The notes under the pieces were generated by a model. The model did not search any database. It was not told the origin of the DNA and saw only the letters and a program-made list of their open reading frames with translations. 64,000 nt of DNA. It comes from a bacterium (lineage in GTDB: Bacteria; Elusimicrobiota; Elusimicrobia; Elusimicrobiales; UBA9959). This document shows positions 27,639-64,000 of the stretch, one piece after another. The stretch's first letter is position 1. Each line of letters begins with the position of its first letter. The position numbers were made by a program, and so were the translations under genes. The stretch spans positions 1-64,000 of the forward strand of contig JAJYJH010000012.1 of the NCBI GenBank assembly GCA_021789695.1. The letters are read 5' to 3'.

Positions 27639-27976
27639 GGGAACCTCTTTTCTGGTGTCTTCGCCTTGATGCGGCGTCCCCCTTAACGGGGCCGCCCTGT
27701 TAAAGGTGTTATACATAAATACGGCCTTGTTTTCCAGCCCCTCAATGTCCGCCGCGCTGCGCCGGCCCAGGCCCGGCGCCGCCGATGGAGCCGGCGAGTA
27801 TCCCGCACGGGCGCCGGTCTCGTAACGGACGATGTTCCCGCTGTCCAAAGCCGGTAGCTTCTCCCGGCCCTCTGGGGCTTTTGCCGGCCATGGATCAGGC
27901 CCAAAGACTCTTATTCTCCCCTCCGGCGTTTTGTACAATATAAAAATAATCGCACAGCGGCTTGAAGGAGACATTA
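27639..27976. other. Divergent intergenic region with two promoter-like sites
   Basis: These 338 bases separate two divergent secreted-protein genes. On the minus strand TATAAC lies at 27718-27723 with TGGAAA 17 bases upstream. On the plus strand TACAAT (27934-27939, preceded by TG) lies about 37 bases before the 27977 start. I see no small gene or stable RNA in it. Confidence 0.45.
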
Positions 27977-55738: not shown

Positions 55739-56095
55739 ATGACCGACGAAGAGTTCGAAAGGCTGGCGGAGAAGGTTGTCGGCGGCCTGCCGGAGGAGTT
55801 CCGCGCCAGGCTGGAGAACGTCGTGGTCGTGGTCAGGCCGGCCCCGACTGCGGAGCAGGCGCGGCGCTTCGGCGCCGGGCTGTTGGGGCTCTACGAGGGG
55901 GTGCCGCTGACCGAGCGCGGGTCGTTCTACAGCGGAGCCATGCCGGACAAGATAACGCTTTTCAGGGAGAACCTTACTGCCGGCGCCGTCTCGGAAGCCG
56001 CCGTTGAGGGGTGCATAAGGCATACGTTGCTGCATGAGATAGCCCACCACTTCGGCATGGACGACGACGAACTCCGAAAAAAAGGGCTTTACTAG
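55739..56095 (+). CDS. Minimal zincin-type metallopeptidase family protein
   Basis: The 118-residue protein belongs to the short metallopeptidase family (PF06262-like): DEEFERLAEKVVGGLPEEF near the start, PDKITLFRENL, and the zinc motif HTLLHEIAHHFGMDDDEL (HExxHH with a downstream Asp/Glu). Its substrate is unknown. The TAG stop at 56093-56095 is the first three bases of the dispersed repeat TAGGGACGCTGCTTCC, so insertion of the repeat set this C-terminus. Confidence 0.85.
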   Translation: MTDEEFERLAEKVVGGLPEEFRARLENVVVVVRPAPTAEQARRFGAGLLGLYEGVPLTERGSFYSGAMPDKITLFRENLTAGAVSEAAVEGCIRHTLLHEIAHHFGMDDDELRKKGLY

Positions 56096-56185
56096 GGACG
56101 CTGCTTCCTATCTTCCTAACTTTACGAAAGGAACGCGAAGTTTTTGACGAGCCGGGTTTAGGAAGAATAGGAAGCAGCGTCCCTA
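56093..56185. repeat. Palindromic intergenic repeat (REP-like) between convergent genes
   Basis: The left end TAGGGACGCTGCTTCC (56093-56108) and right end GGAAGCAGCGTCCCTA (56170-56185) are perfect complements, and pairing continues almost unbroken through TATCTTCCTAA. The 40-base middle is unrelated. The left TAG ends the metallopeptidase gene, and the right CTA, read on the minus strand, is the TAG of rimO. A third copy lies at 63395. It may also terminate transcription, though no T-run is present. Confidence 0.85.
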
Positions 56186-57481
56186 ACTGAGTTTTGCCTT
56201 GCGCAGGTAGCCGGTGGCGCTCAGTATCCTGGCATTCACGAAATCCCCCGCCTTCAGTTTTCTGCCTGGGGCAGGTTCCACTTCCACCCTGCCGTCTATC
56301 TCCGGGGCATCTCTGTAGGTGCGCCCGAAGCGCGGCGAATCCATCAGCAGTTCCAGCGTACTGCCCCTGAGGCCGGCGTTGATCCGGTCCACCACGGCGC
56401 TCTGCGCCCGTATGAGCGCGTCTGCGCGCTCCGCCTTTACCCCTCCAGGGACCTGGTCAGGGAGGTCGGCGGCCGCGGTTCCTGGCTCGCGCGAATAGCC
56501 GAAGACACCCACGTTGTCGAACCCGGCCTCTTTTACGAAGGCGAGCAGCCTTTTGAAGTCGGCGGCGGTCTCGCCCGGGAAACCGACTATAAAATTGGTG
56601 CGCAGCGCGATGTCCGGCATGGCCCGGCGCAGCTCCGCTATCTTCGCTTTTATGGAGGCGGCGGTGGAGGAGCGGTTCATGCGCCTGAGAACAGGATCGG
56701 ATATATGCTGCAGCGGCATATCCAGGTAGCGGACGACGCTTTTGTTGGTCTTCATTACCCCTAGCAGCTCTTTGGTCACCCGCTCAGGGTAGACGTACAT
56801 AAGCCGCCACCAGCGCACGCCTTGTATCTTTACCAACTCCTTCAGCAGCCCGGCCAGGCGCGGCTTTCCGTAGAGGTCCAGGCCGTAGGAGGTGGTGTCC
56901 TGCGCTATCAGCGAGATCTCCACGGCGCCGCTGGCGGCCAGGCGGGCGGCCTCTTCCAGGACCGACTCGAAGGGCTTGGAGCGGAACGGGCCACGTATGG
57001 ACGGGATCAGGCAGTAGGCGCAGCGGTTGCCGCAACCGTCGGCTATCTTCAGGTAGGCGCTGTGGGGAGCGGTCAGCCTGGCTTTCACGCGCGGGGAGTC
57101 TATGCGGGTATCGGCGGCCAGGATATAGCTCCTGCCGGCCGCTATAGCCTCTGCGGCCCTGGAGAGCGCGTTGACTCCCACCAGCGCGTCTATGCCTGGG
57201 AACTTTTCGAGCAGGGCCTCCTTCTCGCGCTCCACCAGACAACCCGCCACCAGGACCTTAGAGAGCCTGCCGCGGGCCTTCAGGCGCAGCAGGCGGCGTA
57301 TTTCGCCCTCTGATTCCCTGACCGCGGAGCCCAGGAAAGCGCAGGTGTTGAGCAGCGCGGCGTCGGCGCCCTCCTCGGAGGGGACCAGTTCCCAGCCCGC
57401 CGCGGCCAGTTCCCCGGCCATGACCTCGGAATCGGAGAGGTTCTTCGGGCAGCCCAGCGAAACTATGAACAGTTTAGGCAT
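56183..57481 (-). CDS. rimO: Ribosomal protein S12 methylthiotransferase
   Basis: The 432-residue enzyme has the N-terminal UPF0004 domain (FIVSLGCPKNLSDSEVM, with cluster cysteines in NTCAFL and AGCLVERE), radical SAM motif CGNRCAYCLIPSIRGPFRSKP and a C-terminal TRAM domain (about 370-430). The IPxxRGxxRSKP segment separates RimO from MiaB. It methylthiolates Asp88 of S12. The stop codon lies in the repeat at 56093-56185. The CorA-like gene ends four bases upstream. Confidence 0.93.
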   Translation of the reverse strand: MPKLFIVSLGCPKNLSDSEVMAGELAAAGWELVPSEEGADAALLNTCAFLGSAVRESEGEIRRLLRLKARGRLSKVLVAGCLVEREKEALLEKFPGIDALVGVNALSRAAEAIAAGRSYILAADTRIDSPRVKARLTAPHSAYLKIADGCGNRCAYCLIPSIRGPFRSKPFESVLEEAARLAASGAVEISLIAQDTTSYGLDLYGKPRLAGLLKELVKIQGVRWWRLMYVYPERVTKELLGVMKTNKSVVRYLDMPLQHISDPVLRRMNRSSTAASIKAKIAELRRAMPDIALRTNFIVGFPGETAADFKRLLAFVKEAGFDNVGVFGYSREPGTAAADLPDQVPGGVKAERADALIRAQSAVVDRINAGLRGSTLELLMDSPRFGRTYRDAPEIDGRVEVEPAPGRKLKAGDFVNARILSATGYLRKAKLS

Positions 57482-57485
57482 GGCG

Positions 57486-58256
57486 TCAATGCTCCTCCAG
57501 GCGGTTTATGGGTATGAACGCGATCCAGCCCAGCAGCAGCATCGCGAACAGGAAGACCGGATAGGCCACCTCCGGGCCGTGGATGCCGGTTGTCGCGTAC
57601 AACTCGGACATTCCTCCCATCCCGGAGAAAAGGCGCGGGACGGCCGCGGCTATGACGACGACACTGAGGCTCTTCATCAGGATGTCGGGGTTGTTGCTGA
57701 TGACGGAGGACCGCGCGCCCACGAGCGACGCGAAGACGTTGGAGTAGATGGAGGCCTGCCTGTAGCATTGCTGGTTCTTTATCGTGATATCGTCCATGAA
57801 CTCGATGCTGCGCTGCAAAAAACCGGCCTTCCCGGCCGCGTGCCTGAGGCGCTCTATCACGCCCGTGTCGGCGGTAACCGCGTCGACGTAGTAGGCTAGA
57901 CTCTTTTCCGGCGCGAACATGTTGATCAGGTGCTTGTTCTCCAGCGAGTAGGTGATCTTGGTCTCCAGCTCTTCGGAAATCATGCCGATGACCTTCAGGT
58001 GTCCCATAAAATGGAAGATGGAATTGTAAATCAACTTCAGGAACACCTCGCGTATGCCCGAGACCTGCTTGAAGTACTTGTCCGAGCGCATACTGACGTC
58101 CTCAGGCAGTGCCAGCACCAGCCTGTCCCTGAACAGGAACAGGCCCATAGACGTGACCTTGAACAGAAATTTGAAGATCAGCGCGAGGCGGCCCGGCTCC
58201 GTCTCAAGGCGCGCCGGCTCCAGCCGGCGGTCCCTGATGCGGTATTCCGTGATCAT
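57486..58256 (-). CDS. CorA-like membrane protein with altered signature motif
   Basis: The 256-residue product looks like a shortened CorA magnesium channel: a soluble alpha/beta start, a long helical region (YVDAVTADTGVIERLRHAAGKAG), and two terminal helices. The first (ILMKSLSVVVIAAAVPRLFSG) is followed by MGGMSEL where CorA has YGMNF. GMN, the selectivity-filter motif, is thus GMS. The second is YPVFLFAMLLLGWIAFIPI. It may be non-transporting or of altered selectivity. The start is uncertain: ATG 58256 lacks an SD, while a GTG at 58319 would overlap sucD. Confidence 0.65.
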   Translation of the reverse strand: MITEYRIRDRRLEPARLETEPGRLALIFKFLFKVTSMGLFLFRDRLVLALPEDVSMRSDKYFKQVSGIREVFLKLIYNSIFHFMGHLKVIGMISEELETKITYSLENKHLINMFAPEKSLAYYVDAVTADTGVIERLRHAAGKAGFLQRSIEFMDDITIKNQQCYRQASIYSNVFASLVGARSSVISNNPDILMKSLSVVVIAAAVPRLFSGMGGMSELYATTGIHGPEVAYPVFLFAMLLLGWIAFIPINRLEEH

Positions 58257-58289
58257 CAAAAGGGCCCGCCGGCGCTGATTCTCCGGCGG
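58257..58289 (-). terminator. Possible terminator of the sucCD operon
   Basis: On the minus strand CCGCCGG (58289-58283) pairs with CCGGCGG (58272-58266), followed by GCCCTTTT. It lies between sucD and the ATG of the CorA-like gene. If functional, it favours that ATG over the GTG at 58319. Confidence 0.4.
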
Positions 58290-58308
58290 ACTCGTTCCTT
58301 TCCCCCGT

Positions 58309-59217
58309 CTATCTGCCACCCGCTCTCGCCTTCGGTTTGAGCTTCGCGGCCACGGCCTCGCCTATCTGGGAGAGATTGTCCACCACGGTGGCGCCGGCCT
58401 TCCGGAGCGCCTCCACTTTGGAGGCGTGCGTGCCGGCTCCTCCCTCGACGATGGCGCCGGCGTGGCCCATCCGGCGTCCCGGAGGCGCGGTTTTGCCGGC
58501 GACGAAGCAGAAGACCGGTTTGGTCATTTCGCCTTTGATGTAACTGGCCGCGTCCTCTTCCGCGGAACCTCCGATTTCTCCGATCATGATGACGGCCTCG
58601 GTCTGCCTGTCGGCCTCGAAGAGCTTCAACACGTCCACGAAGTTCATGCCCTGCACCGGGTCGCCGCCTATGCCGACGACGGTGCTCTGGCCGAGGTTCT
58701 GGGAGGTAACCTGCCAGACGGCCTCGTAGGTCAGCGTGCCGGAGCGCGAGACTATGCCTACGGAGCCCTTCTTGTGGATGTAGCCGGGCATGATGCCGGC
58801 CTTGCACTCGCCGGGTGTTATCACTCCGGGGCAGTTGGGGCCTACGAGCGTGACGTCTCGGCCGGCGGCGCGCTGGGCATTCAGACGCTTCTTGACGCGC
58901 ACCATATCCATCACCGGGATGCCCTCGGTAATGCAGATGATAACGGAGACGCCGGCGTCGGCGGCCTCGAGTATCGAGTCGGCGGCGTACGGCGGGGGAA
59001 CGAAAATCAGTGACGCGTTGGCGCCTGTGGCTTTGACGGCGTCGCGGGCGGTGTTGAAGACCGGCTTGCCGAGGTGCTCTGCGCCGCCTTTGCCTGGCGT
59101 GACGCCCCCGACTATATCGGAGCCGTACTCGAGGCACTGTTGGGCGTGAAAGGAGCCCTGAGCACCGGTGAAACCGTGTACTATCAGTTTGGTCTTTTTG
59201 TTCAAAAGTATGGACAT
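58309..59217 (-). CDS. sucD: Succinyl-CoA synthetase, alpha subunit
   Basis: The 302-residue subunit has a CoA-binding N-terminal half ([32 protein letters not shown]), and the catalytic phospho-His loop [18 protein letters not shown] near residue 246. With SucC it interconverts succinate and succinyl-CoA with ATP or [21 protein letters not shown] is the conserved ligase loop. AGGAG precedes the ATG; sucC ends four bases upstream. Confidence 0.95.
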
Positions 59218-59221
59218 GTCG

Positions 59222-60382
<1,161 letters not shown>

Positions 60383-60468
60383 CGGTCCTCCAGGTCTGCC
60401 GCGGCGCCAAAGCCCGCCCTTCGTCCGGCGTCGGGCGCGGGTTTGAACCCCGGTAAGTTAATTTGTAG

Positions 60469-60512
60469 TATAATTCATGACGCAAAGTCCAGCCCCGAGG
60501 GGCCTGGATTTT
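60469..60512 (+). promoter_or_regulatory. korAB promoter with leader hairpin
   Basis: TATAAT at 60469-60474 precedes a leader whose TCCAGCCCC (60488-60496) pairs with GGGGCCTGGA (60499-60508, one bulged C) and is followed by TTTT (to 60512), about 30 bases before the korA ATG. Such a placement suits an attenuator-like terminator. Confidence 0.45.
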
Positions 60513-60543
60513 CCCGCTTTTAAGGCCAGAGAGGTTCCTGAAA

Positions 60544-62397
60544 ATGACCAAACCAAAGAGCAGAAACGTGAACGTCAGCGAGCTGAGCTCGGTCACAGTG
60601 CGCTTCGCCGGAGATTCGGGCGACGGCATACAGCTGGTGGGCAGCCGGTTCGCCAACGCCACGGCCGTGGCCGGCAACGAACTCAGCACCCTGCCGGACT
60701 ACCCGGCCGAGATCCGCGCCCCCGCCGGGTCGCTGGCCGGCGTCAGCGGCTTCCAGATAAGCTTCGGCGACGAGTCAGTGCTTACCCCCGGTAACAAACC
60801 GGACGTGCTGGTGGTAATGAACCCGGCGGCCCTGGCAGTCAACCTTAAGAGCCTTGAGAAGGGGTCCATCATAGTAGCCAATTCCGACGCCTTCGTGCCG
60901 GCCGCGCTGGAGAAGGCGGGCTACACCGCCAACCCGCTCGAGGACGGGACGCTGGACAACTACCGCGTGATAGCCGTCCCGGCCAATACGATGACGGAAA
61001 ACACGCTTAAGGACTCCGGTCTGCCCAAGCCGCAGGTCCTTAAGTGCAAGAACTTCTATATGCTCGGCATCCTGTACTGGATGTACGGCCTGCCGCTGGA
61101 GTCCACCAAGGAGTGGATAGAGAACAAGTTCAAGAAGGCGCCGGAGATCGCGGCCGCCAATTCCAAGGTGCTGGAAGCCGGCTACGACTACGCCGAGACC
61201 ACCGAACTCTTTGACGCCCGCTTCCAGGCGAAAAAGAGCGCGGTGACTCCGGGTAAGTACCGCAACCTGACCGGCAACGAGGCCGCCGCATACGCGCTGA
61301 TTACCGCGGCAAAACTGCTAAAGAAGAAGCTCTATTATGGCTCCTACCCGATAACGCCGGCCTCGGAGATCCTGCATACGCTGGCCAAGCACCGCGCCAA
61401 CGACGTGGTGATCTTCCAGGCCGAGGACGAGATAGCCGCGATCTGCTCCACGATAGGAGCCGCTTTCTCCGGCGAGCTGGCCGCTACCGGTACCAGCGGC
61501 CCCGGTCTGTCGCTGAAGGCGGAGGCCTTGGGGCTGGGCGTCATAGCCGAGCTGCCTATGGTGATAGTGGACGTGCAGCGCGGTGGCCCCTCCACCGGCC
61601 TGCCCACGAAGACCGAGCAGTCGGACCTGCTGCAGGCCGTTTACGGCCGCCACGGCGAGAGCCCGCTGGTCGTGCTGGCCGCCTCCAGCCCGGCCGACTG
61701 CTTTCACACGACGCTCGAGGCCGCGCGCATAGCCGTCAAGTATATGACGCCGGTCGTAGTGCTGACCAACTCCTACCTTTCCAACGGCTCCGAGCCGTTC
61801 CGCATCCCGAAGCTCTCCGAGCTGCCGAAGTTCGAGCTGCCGCCGCGCCCTGGGCCGGGGGACTACAAGCCGTTCATGCGCGACCCCGAGACGCTGGCCA
61901 GGCCCTGGGCGTGGCCGGGGCTAAAAGGCTACGAGCACCGCATAGGCGGCCTGGAGAAGCAGGACGTTACCGGCGCCATCAGCTACGACGCCGAGAACCA
62001 CGAGAGGATGACCCAGCTGCGCGCCGAGAAGGTGCGCCGCGTGGTCAAGGAAATACCGCAGACCAGGATATACGGCCAGCCCGAGGGCGAGCTGCTGGTC
62101 GTGGGCTGGGGCTCGACCTATGGCGCTATAACCTCCGCCGTGACCAAGGCCAGACGCGAGGGCATCAGCGTGTCCTCGGTCCACATCCGCAACATCTTCC
62201 CGCTGCCGCCGGACCTGGGCGCTACGATGCGCCGTTTCCGGAAGGTGCTGGTGCCGGAGGAGAACACCGGTCAGCTGCGTATGCTCTTGCGCTCGGAGTA
62301 TATGGTGGAGCCGCTGGGCCTCAACAAAATGCAGGGCCAGCCGTTGAACTCCGACGAGGTGCTGGAGAAAATAAAAGAGGTCCTTAGAGGTAACTGA
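60544..62397 (+). CDS. korA: 2-oxoacid:ferredoxin oxidoreductase, fused gamma-alpha subunit
   Basis: The 617-residue protein has a gamma domain at about 15-200 (TVRFAGDSGDGIQLVGSRFA; PAEIRAPAGSLAGVSGFQI) fused to an alpha domain beginning near residue 240 (YYGSYPITPASEILHTLAKH; GTSGPGLSLKAEALGL; DVQRGGPSTGLPTKTEQSDLLQA). The order and length match 2-oxoglutarate:ferredoxin oxidoreductase (KorA), though 2-oxoisovalerate or pyruvate cannot be excluded. With KorB it interconverts the 2-oxoacid and its acyl-CoA using ferredoxin. Adjacent sucCD supports 2-oxoglutarate. An AGAGG-like SD lies upstream. Confidence 0.92.
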   Translation: MTKPKSRNVNVSELSSVTVRFAGDSGDGIQLVGSRFANATAVAGNELSTLPDYPAEIRAPAGSLAGVSGFQISFGDESVLTPGNKPDVLVVMNPAALAVNLKSLEKGSIIVANSDAFVPAALEKAGYTANPLEDGTLDNYRVIAVPANTMTENTLKDSGLPKPQVLKCKNFYMLGILYWMYGLPLESTKEWIENKFKKAPEIAAANSKVLEAGYDYAETTELFDARFQAKKSAVTPGKYRNLTGNEAAAYALITAAKLLKKKLYYGSYPITPASEILHTLAKHRANDVVIFQAEDEIAAICSTIGAAFSGELAATGTSGPGLSLKAEALGLGVIAELPMVIVDVQRGGPSTGLPTKTEQSDLLQAVYGRHGESPLVVLAASSPADCFHTTLEAARIAVKYMTPVVVLTNSYLSNGSEPFRIPKLSELPKFELPPRPGPGDYKPFMRDPETLARPWAWPGLKGYEHRIGGLEKQDVTGAISYDAENHERMTQLRAEKVRRVVKEIPQTRIYGQPEGELLVVGWGSTYGAITSAVTKARREGISVSSVHIRNIFPLPPDLGATMRRFRKVLVPEENTGQLRMLLRSEYMVEPLGLNKMQGQPLNSDEVLEKIKEVLRGN

Positions 62398-62398
62398 C

Positions 62399-63397
62399 AT
62401 GGAAAACACCAAGCTTACGGCCAAGGATTTCTCCTCCAATCTCCCGGTTAAGTGGTGCCCGGGCTGCGGCAATTTCGCCATCCTTAACATGATGCAGAAG
62501 GTGATGGCGGGTATGAACCTGCCCCACGAGAAGTACACGGTAATCTCGGGCATCGGCTGCTCCAGCCGCTTCCCGTACTACGTCAGCACGTACGGTTTCC
62601 ACTCCATACACGGCCGCGCGGCCGCCGTGGCCACGGGCGTGAAGTTGTCCAACCCCGAGCTCGCGGTCTGGGTCATCACCGGCGACGGAGACGGCCTCAG
62701 CATCGGCGGCAACCACATGCTGCACGCGATACGCCGCAACATCGGTCTGAAGATAGTACTGTTCAACAACCGCATCTACGCGCTGACAAAGGGCCAGGCC
62801 TCGCCGACCACCCAGCCGGGCACCAAGACTAAGACTACCCCGCTGGGTTCGATAGATTATCCCTTCAACCCGGCCAGCTTCGCTGTAGGTCTGGGCTGCA
62901 CGTTCGTCGCGCGCGGCCTGGATAATGACATGGCCGGCACCACCGCGATACTGGAGCGGGCGGCGAAGCACGAGGGCACGGCCTTCGTGGAGATACTGCA
63001 GAAGTGCGTGCCCTTCTCGGACAAGGAGTTCGAGCCGCTGAAGGACCCGGCCCTGCGCGAGGACATGTTACTGCGCGTGGAGCACGGTAAGCCGCTGCTC
63101 TTCGGCAAGGACAAGAACAAGGGCATCGTGATAAAAGACATGAAGCCGGAGGTCGTGACCTTCTCGGGTAAGGTGCCTCCTGAGGTGGCGGTTTACGACG
63201 AGGCTAATCCCGGGCTGGCCTGCCTGGTAAGCGGCCTGACGCAGCCGGAGTTCCCGGTGCCACTAGGTGTGTTGCGCGCCGTACGCAAGCCCTCCTACGA
63301 GGAACTCTACTATGACCACGTTAAGGCTGTCGGAGACACGAGGGAGCACGAACTCGAAACCCTCCTCACCGGCCCCGATGCCTGGGAAATGAAGTAG
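62399..63397 (+). CDS. korB: 2-oxoacid:ferredoxin oxidoreductase, beta subunit
   Basis: The 332-residue subunit binds TPP and a 4Fe-4S cluster. Cluster cysteines start at KWCPGCGNFAIL, with another in GIGCSSRFPYY, and the TPP motif is VITGDGDGLSIGGNHMLHAIRRN with NNRIYALTKGQASPT. It starts one base after the korA stop. Its TAG stop (63395-63397) is the beginning of the dispersed repeat, so the last residues (DAWEMK) border an insertion. Confidence 0.93.
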   Translation: MENTKLTAKDFSSNLPVKWCPGCGNFAILNMMQKVMAGMNLPHEKYTVISGIGCSSRFPYYVSTYGFHSIHGRAAAVATGVKLSNPELAVWVITGDGDGLSIGGNHMLHAIRRNIGLKIVLFNNRIYALTKGQASPTTQPGTKTKTTPLGSIDYPFNPASFAVGLGCTFVARGLDNDMAGTTAILERAAKHEGTAFVEILQKCVPFSDKEFEPLKDPALREDMLLRVEHGKPLLFGKDKNKGIVIKDMKPEVVTFSGKVPPEVAVYDEANPGLACLVSGLTQPEFPVPLGVLRAVRKPSYEELYYDHVKAVGDTREHELETLLTGPDAWEMK

Positions 63398-63424
63398 GGA
63401 CGCTGCTTCCCAACTTCCAAACTT
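63395..63424 (+). repeat. Third copy of the TAGGGACGCTGCTTCC repeat
   Basis: The first 16 bases are identical to the ends of the repeat at 56093-56185, and homology continues as CTTCC and AACTT with four mismatches. It begins with the korB stop codon. It occurs as a single end here, 137 bases before a RAYT-type transposase gene. Confidence 0.8.
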
Positions 63425-63467: not shown

Positions 63468-63495
63468 GCACCCCGACAGGCAGTTGTCGGGGTGC
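63468..63495. repeat. Perfect inverted repeat upstream of the transposase
   Basis: GCACCCCGAC (63468-63477) pairs with GTCGGGGTGC (63486-63495) over an eight-base loop. There is no T-run. It could terminate korB weakly or be part of the element mobilised by the adjacent protein. A -10-like TATGAT follows at 63501-63506. Confidence 0.6.
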
Positions 63496-63531: not shown

Positions 63532-64000
63532 ATGCCAAGACACGCCAGGATAGATATGCCCGGTCAGATATACCACGCAATGGCGCGCGGCATCGAGCGG
63601 CGCGACATTTTTGTCGGAGAGAATGACTGTTCCGATCTGCGGGGGAGGGTTTCTGTATGGCTCAAAAACGCCGGAGCCAAATTCCTTGCATGGCGTTCTA
63701 TGCCGAACCATTTTCACCTGCTGGTGCTGCGGGGCGAGCGGCCGCTGTCTGAGATCATGCGCCACATCATGACTGGCTACGCGGTGCGCTTTAATTTGAA
63801 GTGCAAGCGCGCCGGGCATCTGTTCCGGAACAGGTATAAGGCCGTAATCTGTGGCGCGGAAAGCTGTCTGATGGAGGCTGTGTCCTGCGTCCATCTTAAT
63901 CCCCTGCGCGGCGGGCAGGTGGCGACCCCGGAAGAACTTAATGGCTACGGGTGGTGCGGTCACGGCGCGGCGCTCACGGGGGCGTGGGACGGTATTCTGG
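63532..64000 (+). mobile_element. RAYT / Y1-type transposase gene, 3' end beyond the window
   Basis: The frame is open from ATG 63532 to the last base (156 codons seen). MPRHARIDMPGQIYHAMARGIERRDIF, divided by the family's RGxxRxxIF motif, leads to WRSMPNHFHLLVL with the HUH histidines at residues 60 and 62, then MRHIMTGYAVRFN, GHLFRNRYKAVI and VHLNPLRGG. These mark the REP-associated (TnpA_REP) branch of Y1 transposases, which cut single-stranded DNA. A strong G-rich ribosome site precedes the ATG. Its neighbour repeat at 63395 is a likely substrate. Confidence 0.88.

What the first reader, a model, noticed from the sequence alone, without database searches (positions are those of the whole stretch)
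56093..63424. Dispersed repeat that supplies the stop codon of three genes
TAGGGACGCTGCTTCC occurs at 56093, inverted at 56170-56185, and at 63395. In each case its first three bases are the TAG stop of the flanking gene (metallopeptidase, rimO, korB). The paired copies form a near-perfect palindrome between two convergent genes. Either the element targets gene ends, or it is selected as a combined stop codon and RNA hairpin.
Basis: seen in the sequence. Interest (0 to 1): 0.75.

Follow-up and report, generated by a model that had tools for sequence, protein, structure and literature searches.

The report
Transposon ends abutting gene stop codons
The short repeat that seems to end three genes is the end sequence of a small jumping-element family in Elusimicrobia, whose first letters happen to complete the TAG stop of the gene it lies against; it is a new family of a known kind with an unusually tight fit to gene ends.

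Summary
In detail: the 16-mer lies at 56093(+), 56170-56185(-) and 63395(+), and each TAG is the stop of its gene. Its 14-base core occurs 12 times in the 2.45-Mb genome (reversed control 0) and, of 61 related genomes searched, in 18, all of one genus, Elusimicrobia by record titles. It is the outer half of a ~29-nt terminal inverted repeat (TIR). The korB copy is one end of an element carrying a Y1 transposase gene (63532 onward; inverted partner just past the window). The 56094-56184 pair is a gene-less miniature. Closest known: TIRYT/TIRtron elements.

10 of 20 arms here overlap a TAG stop exactly, far above chance. But korB, the zincin gene and argS end at the same codon in relatives without the element, so the stop position is native; the element supplies at most the AG of T|AG. 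My best reading, partly inferred: copies land just 3' of genes and flanking spacer is lost until T meets AG. Direct targeting of stops and selection for a stop-plus-hairpin remain open. Ends of GTAG REPs providing TAG stops is already in print (PMC3733652).

The parts
55739..56095 (+). zincin-like metallopeptidase gene; its TAG stop is 56093-56095 and shares AG with the left arm
   Evidence: same last codon in 19 of 19 orthologue rows
56094..56122 (+). left TIR arm of the miniature element (AGGGACGCTGCTTCC...)
56123..56154 (.). variable centre of the miniature element
   Evidence: centres differ between copies
56155..56184 (-). right TIR arm, inverted
56183..57481 (-). rimO; its TAG stop is 56183-56185 and shares AG with the right arm
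62399..63397 (+). 2-oxoacid:ferredoxin oxidoreductase beta subunit gene (korB-like); TAG stop 63395-63397
   Evidence: same last codon in 29 of 30 orthologue rows
63396..63424 (+). left TIR of the transposase-bearing element; inverted partner at contig position 64477-64491 and inward, beyond the window
63468..63495 (+). 10-bp-stem hairpin GCACCCCGACA..TGTCGGGGTGC in the leader of the transposase gene
63532..64000 (+). 5' part of the Y1/HUH transposase gene (runs on to contig position about 64474); split over two frames, and the Tyr conserved in relatives is Cys

Best explanation
The repeat is the terminal inverted repeat of a TIRYT-type element (Y1/HUH transposase gene between long inverted repeats) and of its gene-less miniatures (two inverted arms about 50-115 nt apart). 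Shown here: the family structure, its restriction to one genus among the genomes searched, the arms framing a transposase gene, the excess of exact T|AG overlaps, and native positions of the korB, zincin and argS ends. Inferred: (1) the transposase moves the miniatures in trans; (2) copies that survive lie mostly just 3' of genes; (3) flanking spacer is then lost; (4) because every stop codon begins with T and the element begins with AG, loss can run until T meets AG without changing the protein, and further loss is selected against, so old copies come to rest as T|AGGG. The place of the stop is native; its last two bases become the element's. In this genome the one transposase gene found looks dead, so the copies are ageing remnants.
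For: Arms frame the transposase gene at korB-spoIID in G000 and G007. 23 of 30 related loci in the genus have inverted repeats containing GGGACG; after 13 further loci were fetched, 31 of 43 had both a full-length frame and such a TIR, 28 with GGGACG and 3 with GGGTCA. korB, zincin and argS end at the same codon with or without the element. Junctions change by small deletions: CATTGAG|AGAGACG in G000 against CATT|AGGGACG in G007; nuoN differs by two codons between G000 and G007, yet both stop at the arm's TAG; rimO of G007 has lost its end and reads into the arm. TAA in the empty site of G028 corresponds to TAG|GGGACG at the same codon in G009. By eye, hairpin-plus-T-run terminators present in relatives are missing at several filled sites. 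Outside G000/G007 stop distances are broader (10 of 113 exact, 42 of 68 stop-facing arms within 20 nt), as expected of younger copies. Transposase of this genome: two frames and Tyr to Cys.
Against: No movement was observed and no pair of genomes close enough to show a single insertion base by base was found. Erosion does not explain well the arms that abut start codons (C1 and C27 loci), the exact fit on both sides at three convergent pairs, or why the arm letters stay exact in old copies. Terminators are not always lost: a hairpin like one lies between the arms at argS-nuoN of G000 and directly after single arms at C16:5237 and G007 C34:1467. G014 has the korB-spoIID slot filled with exact T|AG on both sides although G024 and G028, closer to G000 by rimO identity, lack it there, which suggests repeated exact placement. 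In G000/G007 even arms that are not at stops have T before the A/G in 11 of 23, which would fit a T-containing target.
Confidence: 0.5

Rival explanations
1. Direct targeting: the transposase of the G000/G007 subfamily inserts at TAG, or just after the T of a stop codon, so stop codons are its target sites and the element regenerates the stop.
For: 10 of 20 and 8 of 21 arms in G000 and G007 exactly at TAG stops; exact fit also in G014 at korB-spoIID; T before the arm in 11 of 23 non-stop arms of G000/G007; empty TAA against filled TAG at one codon.
Against: In the other genomes, arms not at stops show no T preference before AG: 19 T of 77. If insertion were into the stop codon, its last two bases should lie beyond the far end; of four two-armed copies with T|AG on one side only, read by eye, one has AA there and three do not. 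Two-sided exact fits need more than one insertion.
Confidence: 0.25
2. Selected module: the arm pair is kept because it gives a stop codon plus a 3' hairpin that ends or protects both convergent mRNAs, replacing the native terminator.
For: Very stable hairpin; terminators present in relatives missing at several filled sites; a different element family in the same slot after the same gene in G024; REPs within 15 nt of a stop are reported to stall ribosomes (stated in passages of PMC12306157).
Against: No terminator-like site at the element in a consensus scan (the scan allows loops of 3-8 only, so it cannot judge the big hairpin); many arms are single and cannot form the long hairpin; most relatives lack the element at these genes.
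Confidence: 0.2
3. Chance coincidence of a repeat with three stop codons.
For: None found, apart from the shared ancestry of several G000 and G007 cases.
Against: P(>=10 of 20) 1.2e-15 or, with a raised TAG share, 2.3e-11; P(>=14 of about 31 distinct arms) 1.5e-20 or 1.3e-14.
Confidence: 0.01

Closest known systems
TIRYT / TIRtron (Di Nocera et al. 2013, PMC3733652; most TIRYTs fall in TnpA-REP subclass 2.1 of Quentin et al. 2018, PMC6006769)
   Same: RAYT-like Y1/HUH transposase framed by long TIRs instead of REP hairpins; TIR repeats dispersed singly and as inverted dimers; many TIRs in print share GGGGWSAS, close to GGGGACG[CT] here.
   Different: Seventh base G instead of A, and one G fewer in this genome (AGGGACGC); phylum not named in the main texts searched; tight T|AG overlap and an 8-nt direct repeat inside the TIR are not mentioned in the passages I read.
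GTAG REP / REPIN with RAYT
   Same: Dispersed, often in inverted pairs, framing a Y1 transposase gene; REP ends are stated to 'often provide' the TAG stop of flanking ORFs.
   Different: The single arm is not a hairpin, and G before TAG is not conserved (G at -3 in 16 of 41 G000/G007 arms).
Bacterial MITEs of DDE elements with TA duplication
   Same: Two inverted ends, no gene, short.
   Different: Partner gene is Y1/HUH; no TA at both ends in the AGGGGACG copies.

Membership tests
TIRYT / TIRtron | Y1 transposase with HUH motif and catalytic Tyr | tested here: met
   PF01797 above cut-off; H-x-H and the YxxLNP Tyr in 31 of 31 aligned relatives, Tyr to Cys in this genome's copy. That this Tyr is the catalytic one is recalled.
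TIRYT / TIRtron | long inverted repeats on both sides of the gene, not REP hairpins | tested here: met
   G000 and G007: 33-37 nt; single arms do not fold
TIRYT / TIRtron | motif GGGGWSAS (shared by some TIRs in print, not all) | tested here: not met
   7 of 8 positions in GGGGACG[CT] of relatives, 6 or fewer in AGGGACGC here; the paper gives it as common, not defining
TIRYT / TIRtron | C-terminal HTH or DnaA-C-like domain (subclass 2.1) | tested here: inconclusive
   only sub-threshold Pfam matches, e.g. HTH_24 E 0.007, Bac_DnaA_C E 0.06-0.22
TIRYT / TIRtron | mobility of the element | not testable with these tools
   no experiment; copy differences between relatives only
GTAG REP | self-complementary unit tagged by GTAG | tested here: not met
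TA-duplicating MITE (DDE type) | TA at both ends | tested here: not met
   AGGGGACG copies have A at -2 in 87 of 98 and an unconserved base before it

The most novel reading that the evidence does not exclude
Several HUH-element families in this genus repeatedly take over the slot just after stop codons, displace the native terminator and become the gene's last two bases plus its 3' hairpin: recurrent capture of gene ends. Their TIRs are two-part, a constant GGGGACG cap for the catalytic domain and two 8-bp repeats read by the variable C-terminal domain, so that each transposase addresses its own family.
Probability: 0.15. Interest if true: 0.6.

Novelty: new member of a known kind. Interest (0 to 1): 0.4.

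Why it matters
It offers a case with filled and empty sites in many relatives for asking how small HUH elements come to lie exactly at stop codons, which is stated but not explained for REPs in the paper sections read. It also shows dozens of transposase/TIR pairs in one genus, in which a recognition code could be worked out.

Tried and rejected
Chance: rejected. The element as the thing that fixes where the protein ends: rejected for korB, zincin and argS; it is true in effect for rimO of G007, which reads into its arm. TAG as plain DNA target: no T preference at non-stop arms of the other genomes, 19 of 77, but 11 of 23 in G000/G007, so not excluded for that subfamily. TA target duplication: not met. 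Arm as REP hairpin: not met. Terminator at the element by consensus scan: none, with the limit on loop size named above. Rfam match in L043:1300-2600: none up to E 1. PDB relatives by sequence: one weak hit to argininosuccinate lyase, taken as chance. Papers: letters of the repeat gave 5 listed papers, none on bacterial repeats by title; Elusimicrob + IS200 + inverted repeat gave 1, an insertion-sequence survey, listing only; TIRYT gave 2; REPIN/RAYT/stop codon and MITE/stop searches seen as listings only, as were those. Link of TIR inner part to the C-terminal domain: weak, r 0.38 against 0.34 for the N domain, partial 0.19 against 0.04; the permutation ignores ancestry. One search used '11 of 20', my miscount; one search has the right 10 of 20. 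Names argS, nuoN, spoIID, MarC are recalled from the sequences, not from a call. The independence of the G014 copy at korB rests on identities, not on a tree.

Full report
What is there. The 16-mer is at the three stated places and its TAG is each gene's stop. Comparison of copies shows a longer arm, about AGGGACGCTGCTTCCTAACTTCC(T/A)AACTT, singly or in inverted pairs. The genome has 12 exact 14-mers, reversed control 0. Of 61 genomes, 18 carry it exactly: all 18 are among the 32 of the same genus, 0 of the 29 from other genera. A 22-mer scan of named genomes gave 27 stretches, 19 titled Elusimicrobia and 8 titled 'bacterium'.

What it belongs to. After the korB copy a Y1/HUH transposase gene begins at 63532, and an inverted arm follows at contig position 64477-64491, outside the window. 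G007 has an intact 334-aa gene at the same place. Here the gene is split over two frames and the Tyr conserved in 31 of 31 aligned relatives is Cys, so it is probably inactive; it was the only match of this genome at E <= 1e-30, in two pieces. Its NCBIfam match, REP_Tyr_transpos, is below cut-off, 46 of 80 bits. Of 30 loci examined, 23 have inverted repeats containing GGGACG, 1 has a GGGGTCAG type and 6 showed none. The inner parts differ between families but carry an 8-nt direct repeat: 62% matches at shift 8 against a shuffle mean of 32% and maximum of 40%, over 23 distinct sequences. The element 56094-56184 is the gene-less form; 44 close inverted pairs were found among 154 arms.

Relation to stop codons. 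With at most one mismatch, 10 of 20 arms in this genome and 8 of 21 in G007 overlap a TAG stop exactly. In the other genomes the arm is AGGGGACG; 10 of 113 overlap TAG, 68 face a stop, 42 of these within 20 nt, and 5 are read into. Neighbour classes of two-armed copies resemble the window's background, so there is no sign of a preference for convergent slots; the precise fit, not the class, is what stands out.

Is the stop supplied? korB ends at the same codon in 29 of 30 rows; in the 27 rows without this element the stop is TAG 14, TAA 12, TGA 1. Zincin: 19 of 19 rows, and in the 17 without it TAG 6, TAA 2, TGA 9. argS: 30 of 30, and in the 29 without it TAG 17, TAA 7, TGA 5. The rimO C-terminus varies too much to tell. 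So the place is native, while the kind of stop can change: TAA in the empty site of G028, TAG|GGGACG in G009, same codon.

How the fit may arise. Small deletions are visible at junctions of close genomes, and native terminators of relatives are missing at several filled sites, though not at all. At one slot G024 holds a different family (GGGGACACAATAC...) where G028 holds this one. In spoIID of G000 the stop stands 9 nt from the arm because GGTAAATA is doubled; in G007 it abuts the arm. Loss of spacer that can proceed until T meets AG would give the pattern, but it does not explain the arms against start codons or two-sided exact fits well. Direct targeting and a selected stop-plus-hairpin module stay open.

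What is known. Di Nocera et al. 2013 (PMC3733652; abstract, sections 15 and 16 and passages seen) describe RAYT-like genes framed by long TIRs, dispersed TIR families, and GTAG REP ends that often provide TAG to flanking ORFs. Nunvar et al. 2010 (PMC2817692; passages) define RAYTs. Quentin et al. 2018 (PMC6006769; passages) put 20 of 26 TIRYTs in one subclass with C-terminal HTH domains. RepRanger 2025 (PMC12306157; passages) discusses REPs near stop codons. None of the three main texts searched for it contains 'Elusimicrob'. I therefore rate it a new member of a known kind.

Noticed in passing
63468-63495; also 20 other loci, e.g. L270:1465-1510, L297:1409-1454: A conserved leader dyad CCGACA-N6-TGTCGG, usually followed by CTGCTAT..CTAT, lies before the transposase start in 21 of 37 loci read, across several TIR families; outer stem pairs vary but pair in 13-19 of 21 for the first six. 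Operator, promoter or RNA hairpin.
   Followed up: partly
TIRs of 31 transposase loci (L268-L310): TIR inner parts carry two copies of an 8-nt unit that differs between families, after a constant GGGACG or GGGTCA cap.
   Followed up: partly
L311 (G024 C42), near 27753: A different palindromic family, GGGGACACAATACTTAATTA..TAATTAAGTATTGTGTCCCC, sits just after the same stop codon where G028 holds the repeat studied here; a similar one follows korB in G015.
   Followed up: no
L113 (G014 C52:26049-27163): The transposase gene of G014 reads on into its own right TIR, so its last residues are encoded by the arm; the G000/G007 copies stop at a TAG inside theirs.
   Followed up: no
L021 and L154 (rimO of G000 and G007): rimO of G007 has lost its usual end and takes its last residues from the arm.
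   Followed up: partly
L017, L030, L099, L156: Arms that abut start codons (CAT|AGGGACG, CAT|GGGGACG), filling the whole space between a stop and the next start.
   Followed up: no
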